IMG/VR virus record: IMGVR_UViG_3300020428_000060
Location: 1 to 28,731 of that record
Source of the DNA: a virus
DNA length: 28,731 nt
Direction: 5' to 3' (one strand)
Part shown: piece after piece, positions 10,950 to 25,413 of the stretch
Numbering within the stretch: the stretch's first letter is position 1
Layout: every line of letters starts with the position of its first letter
Translations under genes and position numbers: made by a program
Notes under the pieces: model-generated
Database searches by the model: none
Told to the model about the DNA's origin: nothing
Seen by the model: only the letters and a program-made list of their open reading frames with translations

Positions 10950-11774
10950 TTATTCTGTTATCTGACATTCAATAGCACCATCGTTGTCAATCATGACAGC
11001 TCCTGCACTAAAGTATGATGTTATTAAATTACTTACTTTTTCTGGTAAATAGTTCATTTCAGTAGTAATGTCCTGTCCACTAGCCATCCCAACAGCTGTG
11101 TTGTGATATGCGTGACAGTCCCTAGTTGTACTTGAAATGGATAACCCAGAATGAGTAAACCATAAGAAACCTAACCAACGCTTGGCAGTCATTCCACCAG
11201 CATATGGTAAGTCTCCCTCTCCTACGTATTCTGCTCTGCTGAATTGATCTATTTGTAATAGGTCAGCCCAACCAGCAGGTGATACAACAAAGTATCTTTG
11301 TCCGTCATCAGGGATATCTGCTTCGCCAAATGCTTCATATACTGTTAAAGCTTTAGCTAGCGTCAATGCCGCTGAACCATGAACTACGTTGTTTGAGTTA
11401 GAGCCAGCGTCTAATACATCTATTATTAACTGGTCTACTTTACGTCCAAGAGCCGAAGCAGCTGATTGAGCTAATATTTGTCTTTCGTCAATATTTGTTT
11501 TTAGCTCATCAAGTTTGTCAACCATATCCGCAGCATAGAAATCACTTAATGTGACATCTACTGTAGAATGTGTTAACTCCATTGTTGGAACTTCACCGTG
11601 TCTAGATTTAGTAGACGCTGTGCCTGTTCCTACTTTTTGGAATCTTGCTTGGTTACCTTGAACATTTGATGTTTGTCTTACCGTATTCTTAAGCTTTGAA
11701 CCCATTCTTTGATAAGCCATGTGGACTTCGGATTCAAACTGCTTAATAAACGAATTTGTAATTTGAGTTGCCAT
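10950..11774 (-). CDS. Major capsid protein
   Basis: This 274-residue protein forms the icosahedral shell. It begins MATQITNSFIKQFESEVHMA and contains RMGSKLKNTVRQTSNVQGNQ, then ELTHSTVDVTLSDFYAADMV and DKLDELKTNIDERQILAQSA, patterns I recognise from major capsid proteins of marine podoviruses with an HK97-type fold. SPAGWADLLQIDQFSRAEYV near residue 165 fits the P-domain to A-domain region. A strong AGGAG ribosome binding site lies just upstream of the ATG at 11774. It follows the scaffold and gp13-like genes and precedes a small head protein, the normal head-gene order. There is no obvious N-terminal delta domain, consistent with use of a separate scaffold. Confidence 0.88.
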   Translation of the reverse strand: MATQITNSFIKQFESEVHMAYQRMGSKLKNTVRQTSNVQGNQARFQKVGTGTASTKSRHGEVPTMELTHSTVDVTLSDFYAADMVDKLDELKTNIDERQILAQSAASALGRKVDQLIIDVLDAGSNSNNVVHGSAALTLAKALTVYEAFGEADIPDDGQRYFVVSPAGWADLLQIDQFSRAEYVGEGDLPYAGGMTAKRWLGFLWFTHSGLSISSTTRDCHAYHNTAVGMASGQDITTEMNYLPEKVSNLITSYFSAGAVMIDNDGAIECQITE

Positions 11775-19441: not shown

Positions 19442-19450
19442 ATATAACTT

Positions 19451-19549
19451 GATATCTGGATTATTAATTTAGTCCAGATATCTGTGTATTATAGTACAAG
19501 TTGTAGTATAATAAATTATGGTATCTGGGCAGATGTGTCCAGATATCTA
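19451..19549 (+). promoter_or_regulatory. Early promoter-like site bracketed by palindromes
   Basis: A perfect TATAAT stands at 19507-19512, without a convincing -35. It lies between two inverted-repeat pairs of the same word. GATATCTGGA (19451-19460) pairs with TCCAGATATC (19473-19482), and GTATCTGG (about 19521-19528) pairs with CCAGATAT (about 19539-19546). TCCAGATATCT thus occurs twice in direct orientation on both sides of the -10. This is the layout of an operator pair for a dimeric repressor or activator controlling the genes from 19574. The candidate protein in the window is the LexA-type winged-helix protein at 24882, but the link is guesswork. Confidence 0.5.
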
Positions 19550-19573
19550 ATAAAATAATATGAGGAATATAAT

Positions 19574-19921: not shown

Positions 19922-19966
19922 AAAAAAGTCGCGGACGCGAGGAACAAAGTTCCCCGCGATCGCGAC
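19921..19966 (-). terminator. GC-rich hairpin with T-run on minus strand
   Basis: GTCGCG (19928-19933) pairs with CGCGAC (19961-19966), CGCG (19936-19939) with CGCG (19955-19958), and GGAAC (19941-19945) with GTTCC (19949-19953), with an AAA loop: 15 pairs and two small internal loops. Seven A's precede it on the plus strand (19921-19927), so a minus-strand transcript would read the stem followed by seven U's, the form of an intrinsic terminator. On the plus strand it ends two bases before the AGGAG of the next gene, so there it could instead control translation or mark an RNA processing site. Confidence 0.6.
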
Positions 19967-19977
19967 AGGAGAAAGAC

Positions 19978-21105: not shown

Positions 21106-21285
21106 ATGAGAAAACATGAGATAGAAGAGTACGGTTCGTTAGACCCACATACTTTGTATGTTGTATCTAAATGGATTGATAGCAATAAACCAGAGACAGT
21201 AAGAAAAAAAATATCTGAAGCTATGAATGTGACAGGTTATTTATTAGAACGACACTATGAGGAGAATATAAATGGGAAGACTTAA
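21106..21285 (+). CDS. Small early protein, unknown function (59 aa)
   Basis: The 59 residues read MRKHEIEEYGSLDPHTLYVV, SKWIDSNKPETVRKKISEAM and NVTGYLLERHYEENINGKT. The part at 29-50 (PETVRKKISEAMNVTGYLLE) looks like a small helical DNA- or protein-binding domain. AGGAG at 21096-21100 is five bases from the ATG at 21106; a GTG at 21100 would lie on top of that ribosome site. The stop overlaps the next gene by 14 bases. Function is unknown. Confidence 0.6.
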   Translation: MRKHEIEEYGSLDPHTLYVVSKWIDSNKPETVRKKISEAMNVTGYLLERHYEENINGKT

Positions 21286-21667
21286 AGACATGTTGATAGA
21301 TGAAATGGAAAATAAACAAATAGATCGCGAGATTAAACCAAATGATTTTTCTAATTTTCATAAGAACAATCTAAAAGTATTTGCTTTGATTGTTAGGTAC
21401 GCTGATGAATCTGCTAAGAAACGTAACAGATATTCTATTGAGGATATTTTGAGTATCATCAGGTGGCATAGAGATGAAGATACTGTTGGAGATATATTCA
21501 AATTAAACAACAACTACAAGGCGTACTATGGTAGAATGTATATGCAGTACAGAAACAAACCTAAATTTTTCGAGACACGGAATAGTCTTGCTGACGGCTA
21601 TGACTTTACTGCTGATATAGAAGTTTATGAAAACTACGTAGAGGTATATAGAACATATGAACTGTAA
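21272..21667 (+). CDS. Early protein of unknown function (131 aa)
   Basis: This 131-residue protein starts MGRLKDMLIDEMENKQIDRE and has a central helical part RNRYSIEDILSIIRWHRDED (51-70), followed by NNYKAYYGRMYMQYRNKPKF near 79-98. 'fe......a......fs...i...iR....' recalls small phage early proteins of unknown role that lie before replication genes. GAGGAG at 21259-21264 is about seven bases before the ATG at 21272. After its stop come 271 bases of structured non-coding DNA, so it is probably the last gene of this early sub-operon. Confidence 0.6.
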   Translation: MGRLKDMLIDEMENKQIDREIKPNDFSNFHKNNLKVFALIVRYADESAKKRNRYSIEDILSIIRWHRDEDTVGDIFKLNNNYKAYYGRMYMQYRNKPKFFETRNSLADGYDFTADIEVYENYVEVYRTYEL

Positions 21668-21675
21668 GTCTGAGA

Positions 21676-21921
21676 AGTAAGGTACCATTACTCAGCGTGT
21701 ATGGGATAGATGAGTATCGCCAAAGGCAGAGTGACGTCGTATCTAGGGTTACCTGTCTATCCTTAATGAATTGTCTAAGTTTATATGGCTATGTTCTTAG
21801 ACAAGGGATAGGTATGATAGGCGAACTGCAGTACCGATATCTTATCTATCCTTAATGAATTCTATACAGGGTGTATAGAAATAACGAGATGTTATATACC
21901 CATGTACTGACATACGTGGGT
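21676..21921 (+). other. Tandem structured element upstream of replication genes
   Basis: Two similar units follow each other. Unit A (21703-21804) and unit B (21805-21880) each open with GGGATAG and continue to an identical 17-mer, TCTATCCTTAATGAATT (21756-21772 and 21845-21861). GGATAG can pair with CTATCC in each unit. The unit then closes with a 9-bp hairpin: TTGTCTAAG/CTTAGACAA (21771-21779 with 21796-21804) in A, and TTCTATACA/TGTATAGAA (21860-21868 with 21872-21880) in B. Two more hairpins follow: ATAAC/GTTAT (21881-21895) and ACCCA.GTA/TAC.TGGGT (21898-21921). No ORF of note is present. It precedes the gene at 21939 and could be a leader RNA, replication origin or regulatory RNA. Confidence 0.65.
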
Positions 21922-21938
21922 GTTCATCTGGAGCAACT

Positions 21939-22295
21939 ATGAAAATTGATAGAGTAACTATGACGGAAGATTGGCAACCAACCGACAGAATAAAACAAGA
22001 GTGCGAAGATCGATTCGGACAGGAGATAGAGATTGAACATGAAGTCGAACAATTTAAAGACTATTACCTCTCAACTGGAGGAGCTTACGCTAACTGGAAT
22101 GTCAAATTCAGAGCGTGGTGCAGACAGAATGCAAAGTGGAATAGAGAAAGAAATAATAGAATCAATACCGAAACTGTTTCGGAACAAAGAAACCGTATGT
22201 CTGGAATCATTGACCAGAGAAATGGAAAAACAAATACAAAAGAGAAGCATAATAAAATTAGAATACAACACAAACATATCAAAAGTGTTTCATGA
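21939..22295 (+). CDS. DnaT-like replication protein
   Basis: This 118-residue protein has a 'W.P.........F......E...F..Y....G....NW...FR.W' arrangement: TEDWQPTDRIKQECEDRFGQ (9-28), then VEQFKDYYLSTGGAYANWNV (36-55) and KFRAWCRQNAKWNRERNN (56-73). That is the DnaT/primosomal C-terminal domain pattern common in phage replication proteins, where it binds ssDNA or helps load the host helicase. The remaining 45 residues are polar and probably disordered. GGAG lies about seven bases before the ATG at 21939. It is the first gene after the structured element and starts the replication and recombination set. Confidence 0.7.
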   Translation: MKIDRVTMTEDWQPTDRIKQECEDRFGQEIEIEHEVEQFKDYYLSTGGAYANWNVKFRAWCRQNAKWNRERNNRINTETVSEQRNRMSGIIDQRNGKTNTKEKHNKIRIQHKHIKSVS

Positions 22296-24882: not shown

Positions 24883-25112
24883 TGATAGAAATTAATGGAA
24901 AATGGCTTACGGAAAATCAAAACAAAGTATTGCTGTTTGTTAATGAATACATTGACAAGCATGGTTTTAGTCCAACAGTACTTGAAGTAGCCAAGCATAT
25001 GGATTTTAGATACAGAAGTCAGGCACAAATTGTTATAGATAGATTGTGTCATTATGGTTTTCTAGCAAAAAACAAAGACTTTAGTGTAAGAAATCTAGAA
25101 AAAGTTGAATAA
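24882..25112 (+). CDS. LexA-type winged-helix DNA-binding protein without protease
   Basis: This 76-residue protein matches the N-terminal DNA-binding domain of LexA: LTENQNKVLLFVNEYIDKHG (9-28), FSPTVLEVAKHMDFRYRSQA (29-48) and QIVIDRLCHYGFLAKNKDFS (49-68). The 'G.sPt..eia..l.f.s...v...l..L...G.l' rhythm is clear. The autoprotease domain is missing, so it cannot self-cleave in the SOS response. It may be a phage repressor or activator of early/late switching, or may compete with host LexA for operators. The ATG overlaps the SSB stop (TAATG); GAGGAG lies about eleven bases upstream. Confidence 0.75.
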   Translation: MIEINGKWLTENQNKVLLFVNEYIDKHGFSPTVLEVAKHMDFRYRSQAQIVIDRLCHYGFLAKNKDFSVRNLEKVE

Positions 25113-25122
25113 AAAGAAAGAA

Positions 25123-25413
25123 ATGCAAAACGTTTACAGACGCCAATCAGAGTATGGTTGTGTAGTCTGTAGGCGTTATGGTCTAACGCAGAAAACAAGG
25201 ACAGAAATACACCATTTAAGGGCTTCTATGGGTATGTCTCAGCGTAATGTGAAATGTATACCACTATGTACCGAACACCATAGGGGTAATACAGGTTTCC
25301 ATGGTATGGGTAGGCGTAGTTTCGAGAAAATGTTTTGCTCTGAATTAGAACTATTGAAATGGTATGAGCAAGAGACAGGCGACGTCGTTGACTGGACTAT
25401 TTTTGAAAAGTAA
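25123..25413 (+). CDS. Ref-like/HNH recombination nuclease
   Basis: This 96-residue protein has the zinc and catalytic layout of the Ref-type HNH family: CVVC at 13-16, EIHHLRA at 29-34, CIPLCTEHHRGNTGFHGMG at 45-63, where HH, Cys and the terminal HGMG...F residues line the active site. Ref of phage P1 is a RecA-dependent nuclease that enhances recombination; the small phage relatives usually lie near SSB or annealase genes, as here. I chose the ATG at 25123. A TTG at 25105 would add six residues and overlap the previous gene. This is the last plus-strand gene, ten bases from the convergent block. Confidence 0.75.
   Translation: MQNVYRRQSEYGCVVCRRYGLTQKTRTEIHHLRASMGMSQRNVKCIPLCTEHHRGNTGFHGMGRRSFEKMFCSELELLKWYEQETGDVVDWTIFEK

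What the first reader, a model, noticed from the sequence alone, without database searches (positions are those of the whole stretch)
21676..21921. Tandem structured element with competing pairings before the replication genes
Two units share GGGATAG and an exact 17-mer, TCTATCCTTAATGAATT, 89 bases apart. Each closes with a different 9-bp hairpin, so the pairing is kept while the sequence changes (TTGTCTAAG against TTCTATACA), a hint of selection on structure. GGGATAG of unit B can pair with CTATCC of unit A, extending its hairpin, or with CTATCC of unit B, so two folds exclude each other. TACTCA (21689-21694) and TGAGTA (21711-21716) would form a pseudoknot with the unit A stem. Two more hairpins lead to the start at 21939. 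This looks like a tandem riboswitch-like leader, a multi-hairpin non-coding RNA or a phage replication origin.
Basis: partly seen in the sequence, partly recalled or inferred. Interest (0 to 1): 0.8.

Follow-up and report, generated by a model that had tools for sequence, protein, structure and literature searches.

The report
Swappable RNA hairpin cassettes in phages
Between two early genes of a marine phage, probably one that infects SAR11 bacteria, lies a short row of folded RNA units, each with the same clamp and linker but an exchangeable inner part; unrelated ocean phages carry rows built from the same pool of parts, a kind of interchangeable RNA cassette that I could not find described before and whose job is still unknown.

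Summary
The 16-mer CTATCCTTAATGAATT occurs in 101 viral contigs, about two thirds of them as intergenic, often tandem copies. No genome record held the 20-mer. Each unit is a clamp stem (GGATAGATAGG/CCTATCTATCC) enclosing a payload, then a linker, UUAAUGAAUU. The clamp covaries strongly. In it G-U pairs outnumber A-C 32 to 1, so the folded molecule is sense-strand RNA. I found 75 distinct units with 46 payload types. Payloads recur in phages whose flanking genes are unrelated, and are swapped at orthologous sites with 80-97% identical flanks. A genuine tRNA-Asn fills one slot in four arrays. Arrays also occur in phages where the replication genes lie elsewhere, so this is neither a replication-gene leader nor an origin. 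Rfam has no match except the tRNA. No integrase, Y1 transposase or reverse transcriptase was found in 22 carriers. Best reading: an operon-embedded array of exchangeable RNA hairpin cassettes, cut at the AU-rich linkers, probably by RNase E. RNA structure and exchange are shown; cutting and function are inferred.

The parts
21670..21695 (+). 5' hairpin H1 (CTGAG..TTACTCAG), right after the stop codon of the upstream gene
   Evidence: MFE fold; perfect hairpin in L103 and L105
21704..21762 (+). Unit A: clamp arms 21704-21716 and 21750-21762 enclosing payload AGTATCGCC..GGGTTACC
   Evidence: Model R1 38.2 bits; unit list
21763..21772 (+). Linker TTAATGAATT of unit A (RNase E-like GA|AUU)
   Evidence: Exact in 59 of 87 clamp-following tails; RN|WUU consensus from PMC5222698
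21771..21804 (+). Hairpin H2, stem TTGTCTAAG/CTTAGACAA with conserved loop TTTATATGGCTATGTT (motif M1), the same loop seen on three other stems
21806..21851 (+). Unit B: clamp arms 21806-21819 and 21838-21851; payload GGCGAACTGCAGTACCGA also found in L040 and, at another gene junction, in L026
   Evidence: Model R1 56.7 bits, E 5e-11
21852..21861 (+). Linker TTAATGAATT of unit B
21860..21880 (+). Terminal hairpin TTCTATACA/TGTATAGAA, recurring after the last linker in many arrays
21896..21923 (+). Leader hairpin before the ribosome-binding site (GGAG, 21930-21933)
   Evidence: MFE fold
21939..22295 (+). Downstream gene, DnaT-like DNA-binding domain (PF17948 4.5e-8; phrog_1408 replication initiation 3.2e-9)
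21272..21667 (+). Upstream gene, phrog_13625 (unknown function)

Best explanation
The element is a tandem array of structured RNA cassettes transcribed inside an early (replication/recombination) operon. A cassette is a constant clamp stem (GGAUAGAUAGG/CCUAUCUAUCC) closing an exchangeable payload of about 20-110 nt, usually preceded by a variable hairpin and followed by a constant single-stranded linker, UUAAUGAAUU. Shown here: the sense-strand RNA fold, the covariation, gain, loss and swapping of whole cassettes between related phages, a pool of payloads shared by phages with unrelated flanking genes, and a true tRNA-Asn in one slot. Inferred: the linkers are cut by host RNase E (GA|AUU fits RN|WUU), as in tRNA clusters, so the transcript falls apart into compact RNAs and leaves the downstream mRNA with a fresh 5' end. 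The payload RNAs (or the mRNA ends they cap) are what is selected, most likely RNAs that bind phage or host factors. The constant arms and linker also give the homology by which co-infecting phages recombine cassettes, using their own RecE-like/SSB-type machinery.
For: Clamp covariation: 94.4% of cells paired against 88.7 +- 0.7 shuffled; 34 double changes against 12.8 +- 2.8; 0 of 500 shuffles. Own arms pair better than swapped arms: 245/300 against 213 +- 5. G-U 32 against A-C 1. Model R1 finds about 88 units at E<1e-4, all in array contigs. A search for the clamp without the linker returns almost the same contigs. 46 payload types, several shared across groups A, B, C and D. Orthologous-site swap: L022 and L026 are 97% identical upstream and 80% downstream but carry different payloads in one clamp; the window, L103 and L105 flanks are 94-98% identical with 2, 1 and 3 units. 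Loop M1 is near-identical on four unrelated stems. tRNA-Asn modules. The downstream gene is co-oriented in 36 of 36 arrays. No promoter or terminator inside the array. Exonuclease and SSB genes follow in the window.
Against: No transcript data. RNase E cutting rests on a 5-nt consensus measured in Salmonella, and AU-rich linkers are common in AT-rich genomes. Fold z-scores do not separate sense from antisense. In the window itself the cross-unit fold is 7 kcal/mol better than the own-unit fold. Some units (L107, L108, second sites in L010 and L026) lack the linker, so it is not essential everywhere. Diversity of payloads would also fit a purely structural role.
Confidence: 0.5

Rival explanations
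1. Cis-acting intercistronic mRNA elements only: the hairpins insulate, terminate decay or set segmental mRNA stability between cistrons, and payload identity does not matter.
For: Single clamp hairpins sit between a stop codon and a ribosome-binding site at a second gene junction in group C phages and in L153/L158. The window's own early operon has other strong hairpins at 19442-19573 and 19922-19977. 16 of 40 arrays run from the last linker straight into RBS plus start codon.
Against: Payloads are not random filler: near-identical payloads recur across groups, the M1 loop is kept while stems change, and a true tRNA is a module. Most junctions in these genomes have no clamp hairpin (one search finds one main cluster per genome).
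Confidence: 0.27
2. A DNA-level recombination or cassette-exchange system (integron-like): folded single-stranded clamp DNA plus TTAATGAATT is a recombination site, and the array is its cassette store.
For: Cassette boundaries coincide with the clamp and linker; a small-gene cassette bounded by linkers is shared between groups A, B and C (L067/L051, L032, L074); gain and loss at orthologous sites.
Against: No tyrosine recombinase (PF00589), Y1 transposase (PF01797) or reverse transcriptase (PF00078) in 22 carriers. Compensation through G-U pairs is RNA-specific. Orientation always follows transcription.
Confidence: 0.13
3. Riboswitch-like leader or attenuator of the downstream replication gene.
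For: Position before the DnaT-like gene; mutually exclusive folds in the window.
Against: Different genes follow in other phages, the payload is not conserved, there is no terminator, and Rfam has no match.
Confidence: 0.04
4. Phage replication origin.
For: Hairpins next to replication and recombination genes.
Against: No fixed position, RNA-type covariation, insertion at other junctions, and no GC-skew switch near 21.7 kb (the only clear switches are near 19.0 and 25 kb).
Confidence: 0.04

Closest known systems
Phage tRNA clusters that also hold non-tRNA stable RNAs (T4 type; own knowledge)
   Same: Structured RNAs in a row within one transcript, separated by AU-rich spacers; here one slot holds a real tRNA-Asn.
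   Different: Most modules are not tRNA; they share one clamp with interchangeable payloads; no tRNA cluster is present in the window.
T7 intercistronic RNase III hairpins (own knowledge)
   Same: Stem-loops between early genes, upstream of ribosome-binding sites.
   Different: Constant clamp plus payload pool and a conserved single-stranded linker; tandem rows; payload swapping.
T4-type PeSL (promoter early stem-loop) elements (own knowledge)
   Same: Mobile intergenic stem-loops shared between phages.
   Different: No promoter-like match inside the array; RNA clamp covaries; diverse payloads.
Integron attC cassettes (own knowledge)
   Same: Standard folded flanks around exchangeable content, arranged in tandem; some units carry a small gene.
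   Different: No integrase, the pairing signal is RNA-specific, and content is mostly non-coding.
REP/BIME elements moved by RAYT (own knowledge)
   Same: Repeated intergenic palindromes.
   Different: No Y1 transposase, strict orientation with transcription, payload inside the stem.

Membership tests
Known Rfam RNA family (incl. riboswitches) | Covariance-model score above the gathering cut-off | tested here: not met
   Window 0 hits; 13 array loci only tRNA; E-value scans only chance hits plus tRNA
tRNA gene | Cloverleaf with anticodon, ARAGORN/RF00005 | tested here: not met
   None in the window; met only by one module type, tRNA-Asn(GUU), in L040, L054, L058, L115
Riboswitch leader | Conserved aptamer upstream of the same or related genes | tested here: not met
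   Payload and downstream gene both vary
Riboswitch leader | Expression platform: terminator or RBS sequestration switching with a ligand | tested here: inconclusive
   No terminator-like site on the + strand; alternative folds exist in the window; no ligand test possible
Integron cassette array | Tyrosine recombinase (IntI) | tested here: not met
   PF00589 0 of 22 carriers, controls ring 14 of 14; some contigs are fragments
REP/RAYT or IS200/IS605-type mobile hairpin | Y1 HUH transposase in the genome | tested here: not met
   PF01797 0 of 22; a transposase acting from elsewhere cannot be excluded
Retron / DGR | Reverse transcriptase | tested here: not met
   PF00078 0 of 22
RNase E-processed RNA precursor | Single-stranded RN|WUU sites between stable folds | tested here: met
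   Linker contains GA|AUU; variants AATAAATT, AAAGAATT, TCAATGAATT and ATGGATT keep RN|WUU (PMC5222698). A necessary feature only, not proof
RNase E-processed RNA precursor | Mapped 5' ends at the site that depend on RNase E | not testable with these tools
   No transcriptome data
Type III toxin-antitoxin RNA (ToxI-like repeats) | Near-identical tandem repeats beside a ToxN-type endoRNase gene | not tested
   Payloads differ within an array, which speaks against it; toxin families were not scanned

The most novel reading that the evidence does not exclude
Marine phages share a population-wide pool (46 payload types seen, a crude Chao1 estimate of about 126) of standardised RNA cassettes, constant clamp plus swappable payload, collected into arrays by recombination and released as small trans-acting RNAs: an RNA counterpart of an integron, perhaps a store of RNA decoys or regulators against host factors or defences.
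Probability: 0.25. Interest if true: 0.93.

Novelty: categorically new. Interest (0 to 1): 0.78.

Why it matters
Phage non-coding RNA is poorly charted, and SAR11 phages are among the most abundant viruses in the sea. A standard RNA clamp that accepts dozens of payloads and moves between phages with unrelated flanking genes would be a new way for phages to store and trade functional RNA. It also makes a direct test possible: about 46 natural payload RNAs can be expressed one by one in a laboratory host and probed for partners. Even if the role turns out to be mRNA processing, it is a large, covarying, previously uncatalogued RNA element family with a clear search model.

Tried and rejected
Phage DNA database (INPHARED), distant mode: no related array in any named phage, with the window region or with two rich arrays. 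The nearest named relative, Pelagibacter phage EXVC031P Hodr (terminase 80% identical), lacks the core. Two exact-pattern scans of GTDB genomes gave nothing. Looking for other tRNAs joined to the linker gave only the tRNA-Asn modules L058 and L115 among arrays; the other hits lie in unrelated contigs and look like chance matches, though I did not inspect them singly. Sense against antisense folding z-scores did not separate the strands (26 arrays before the time limit). About a third of the 101 16-mer hits are inside genes and look like chance matches; these were set aside by hand. A first unit definition (nearest GG[AG]TAG) mis-assigned some 5' arms, corrected by a Watson-Crick-only choice, which is unbiased between G-U and A-C but does require at least 2 Watson-Crick pairs. 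The pseudoknot was rejected (not conserved). A search for more relatives at the same locus gave no new phages. Literature searches found no description, but subscription papers are not held. Relatives of a virus record cannot be drawn.

Full report
CHECKING THE OBSERVATION. They lie in a 271-nt gap between a phrog_13625 gene (ends 21667) and a gene with a DnaT-like DNA-binding domain (starts 21939). The gap folds far better than shuffles (z -4.3). Within the window two core copies at up to 3 mismatches are not by themselves beyond chance (mean 0.91), so the weight of the case comes from outside the window.

A REPEAT FAMILY IN VIRUSES. A scan of IMG/VR for CTATCCTTAATGAATT gave 101 contigs. About a third are single copies inside genes and look like chance matches. 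The rest are intergenic, and many contigs have two to five copies 70-260 bases apart. Searching for the clamp without the linker (GGGATAGRTAGG N8-38 CCTATCTATC) returned 17 contigs, 15 of them already found; the two new ones carry the one-base variant TTAATAAATT. Clamp and linker therefore belong together. Exact scans of 84,980 bacterial and archaeal genomes gave nothing (20-mer; payload M3), and no named phage holds an array.

ANATOMY. The repeating order is: hairpin H - 2-4 nt - clamp 5' arm GGATAGATAGG - payload - clamp 3' arm CCTATCTATCC - TTAATGAATT - next hairpin, or the ribosome-binding site and start codon of the next gene. In 16 of 40 arrays RBS plus start follow the last linker within 45 nt. 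The nearest downstream gene is on the same strand in 36 of 36, the upstream one in 35 of 38. Other stems can replace the clamp, with double compensatory changes, e.g. GGGAGTGCT/AGCACTCCC in L026 against GGAAGTGTT/AACACTTCC in L092.

STRUCTURE AND STRAND. On 49 distinct arm sets the clamp pairs in 94.4% of cells (shuffled 88.7 +- 0.7), 7 pairs change on both sides, with 34 double-change cells (shuffled 12.8 +- 2.8), 0 of 500 shuffles reaching any measure, and slid versions drop to 37-51% paired. The first six pairs are fixed by the way units were found; the free pairs 7-11 contain 202 Watson-Crick, 32 G-U, 1 A-C and 15 other cells. Because units were chosen on Watson-Crick pairs only, the G-U excess is direct evidence that the paired molecule is RNA of the coding strand, not DNA and not antisense RNA. 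A covariance model from 20 short units (R1) gives the window units 56.7 and 38.2 bits, and about 88 hits at E<1e-4, all in array contigs; control contigs begin to appear at E about 3e-4. Arrays as a whole are strongly structured on either strand (mean z -3.6 and -3.4).

COMPETING FOLDS. In one-unit relatives (L103, L107) only the own-unit clamp is possible, and covariation follows it. I treat the cross-fold as a by-product or a local rearrangement, but cannot exclude a switch. The proposed pseudoknot is not conserved.

PAYLOADS AND EXCHANGE. 75 distinct units hold 46 payload types. Fifteen types were seen in more than one unit, most of them in contigs of different groups, defined by unrelated flanking genes (A: window-like; B: MoxR-like ATPase downstream; C; D: SSB/RecT-like genes upstream by inspection of the sequences). 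Direct swaps: at a second gene junction in group C, L022 and L026 are 97% identical for 180 nt upstream and 80% for 300 nt downstream but carry quite different payloads in the same clamp. L026's payload is that of window unit B, and L022's is that of an L097 array unit. At the window's own junction L103, the window and L105 have 1, 2 and 3 units between flanks 94-98% identical; L107, L108 and L110 differ in the same way, L110 holding both modules of the others plus more. The loop TTTATATGGCTATGTT (M1) is near-identical on four unrelated stems; 13 of 15 exact hits in IMG/VR are such hairpins. Four arrays hold a tRNA-Asn(GUU) as a module after the linker; in L058 and L115 another linker follows it. 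A small gene (MEHINKYKYIVWVGG...INELPSDR) is another module; its last codons are the linker itself, and it or a close variant sits in arrays of groups A, B and C (L067/L051, L032, L074).

NOT A LEADER, NOT AN ORIGIN. In group C phages and in Hodr the homologues of the two genes that flank the window array are adjacent or nearly so without an array, while group C arrays sit about 3 kb away. There is no promoter- or terminator-like site inside the array, and GC skew changes sign near 19.0 and 25 kb, not at 21.7 kb.

WHO CARRIES IT. The window's terminase is 80% and its portal 73% identical to Pelagibacter phage EXVC031P Hodr, so the host is probably SAR11 (inference). No tyrosine integrase, Y1 transposase or reverse transcriptase is present in 22 carrier contigs, while controls ring. 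The window does carry a RecE-like exonuclease, an SSB and a RecA-dependent nuclease just downstream of the array, which makes homologous exchange through the constant arms the simplest route (inference).

MECHANISM. The best-supported reading is an operon-embedded array of RNA cassettes. The linker UUAAUGAAUU contains GA|AUU, the RNase E core RN|WUU measured in Salmonella (PMC5222698), in single-stranded AU-rich sequence between stable folds; AU preference also holds in the alphaproteobacterium Rhodobacter (PMC6238624). Its common variants keep the motif. A tRNA in one slot must be cut out to work, which fits processing. This step is inferred, not shown. Whether the released payload RNAs act in trans, or the hairpins protect and separate messages in cis, is open; the conserved loops and shared payloads favour payload function, the single hairpins at other gene junctions favour a cis role.

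COMPARISON AND NOVELTY. It works somewhat like a phage tRNA/stable-RNA cluster and, in its exchange of standard cassettes, like an integron, but it meets the defining features of neither. Rfam 15 has no family for it. I found no description in the papers held, with the caveat that subscription papers are absent. I rate it categorically new as an RNA element class, with the warning that its function may prove to be a variant of intercistronic mRNA processing.

LIMITS. All evidence is computational; most contigs are fragments; groups are operational; payload clusters depend on a similarity threshold, and the richness estimate is crude because contigs were collected by one core sequence.

Noticed in passing
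window 19922-19977: A very stable GC-rich hairpin (GTCGCGGACGCGAGG..CGCGATCGCGAC, -25 kcal/mol) fills the gap between a stop codon and the next ribosome-binding site in the same early operon.
   Followed up: partly
window 19442-19573: Three strong hairpins in tandem (two related arms, ATATCTGGA..TCCAGATATC) between two early genes; not of the clamp type.
   Followed up: partly
L067:731-906, L032:9190-9350, L074 (minus strand) about 11000-11160: A small gene (MEHINKYKYIVWVGG..INELPSDR or close variant) bounded by linkers on both sides, its C-terminus encoded by the linker and the next hairpin, present in arrays of different phage groups.
   Followed up: partly
L040, L054, L058, L115: Phage tRNA-Asn(GUU) sitting as a module inside the RNA arrays.
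   Followed up: yes
L022, L054, L110, L139, L140: Payload M3 (GTTACGGCTAAAACTTCC..GTTGAAAGCGAAGTC) on different stems with apparent compensatory changes; looks like a compact RNA domain of its own.
   Followed up: partly
window 25105-25413: RecA-dependent nuclease (Ref-like, PF16786) beside RecE-like exonuclease and SSB genes; its family is shared by many array-carrying contigs.
   Followed up: no
OQ414635.1 record: Locus tags of phage EXVC031P Hodr read 'EXVC032PBaldr', so the record's naming may be mixed up with another phage.
   Followed up: no
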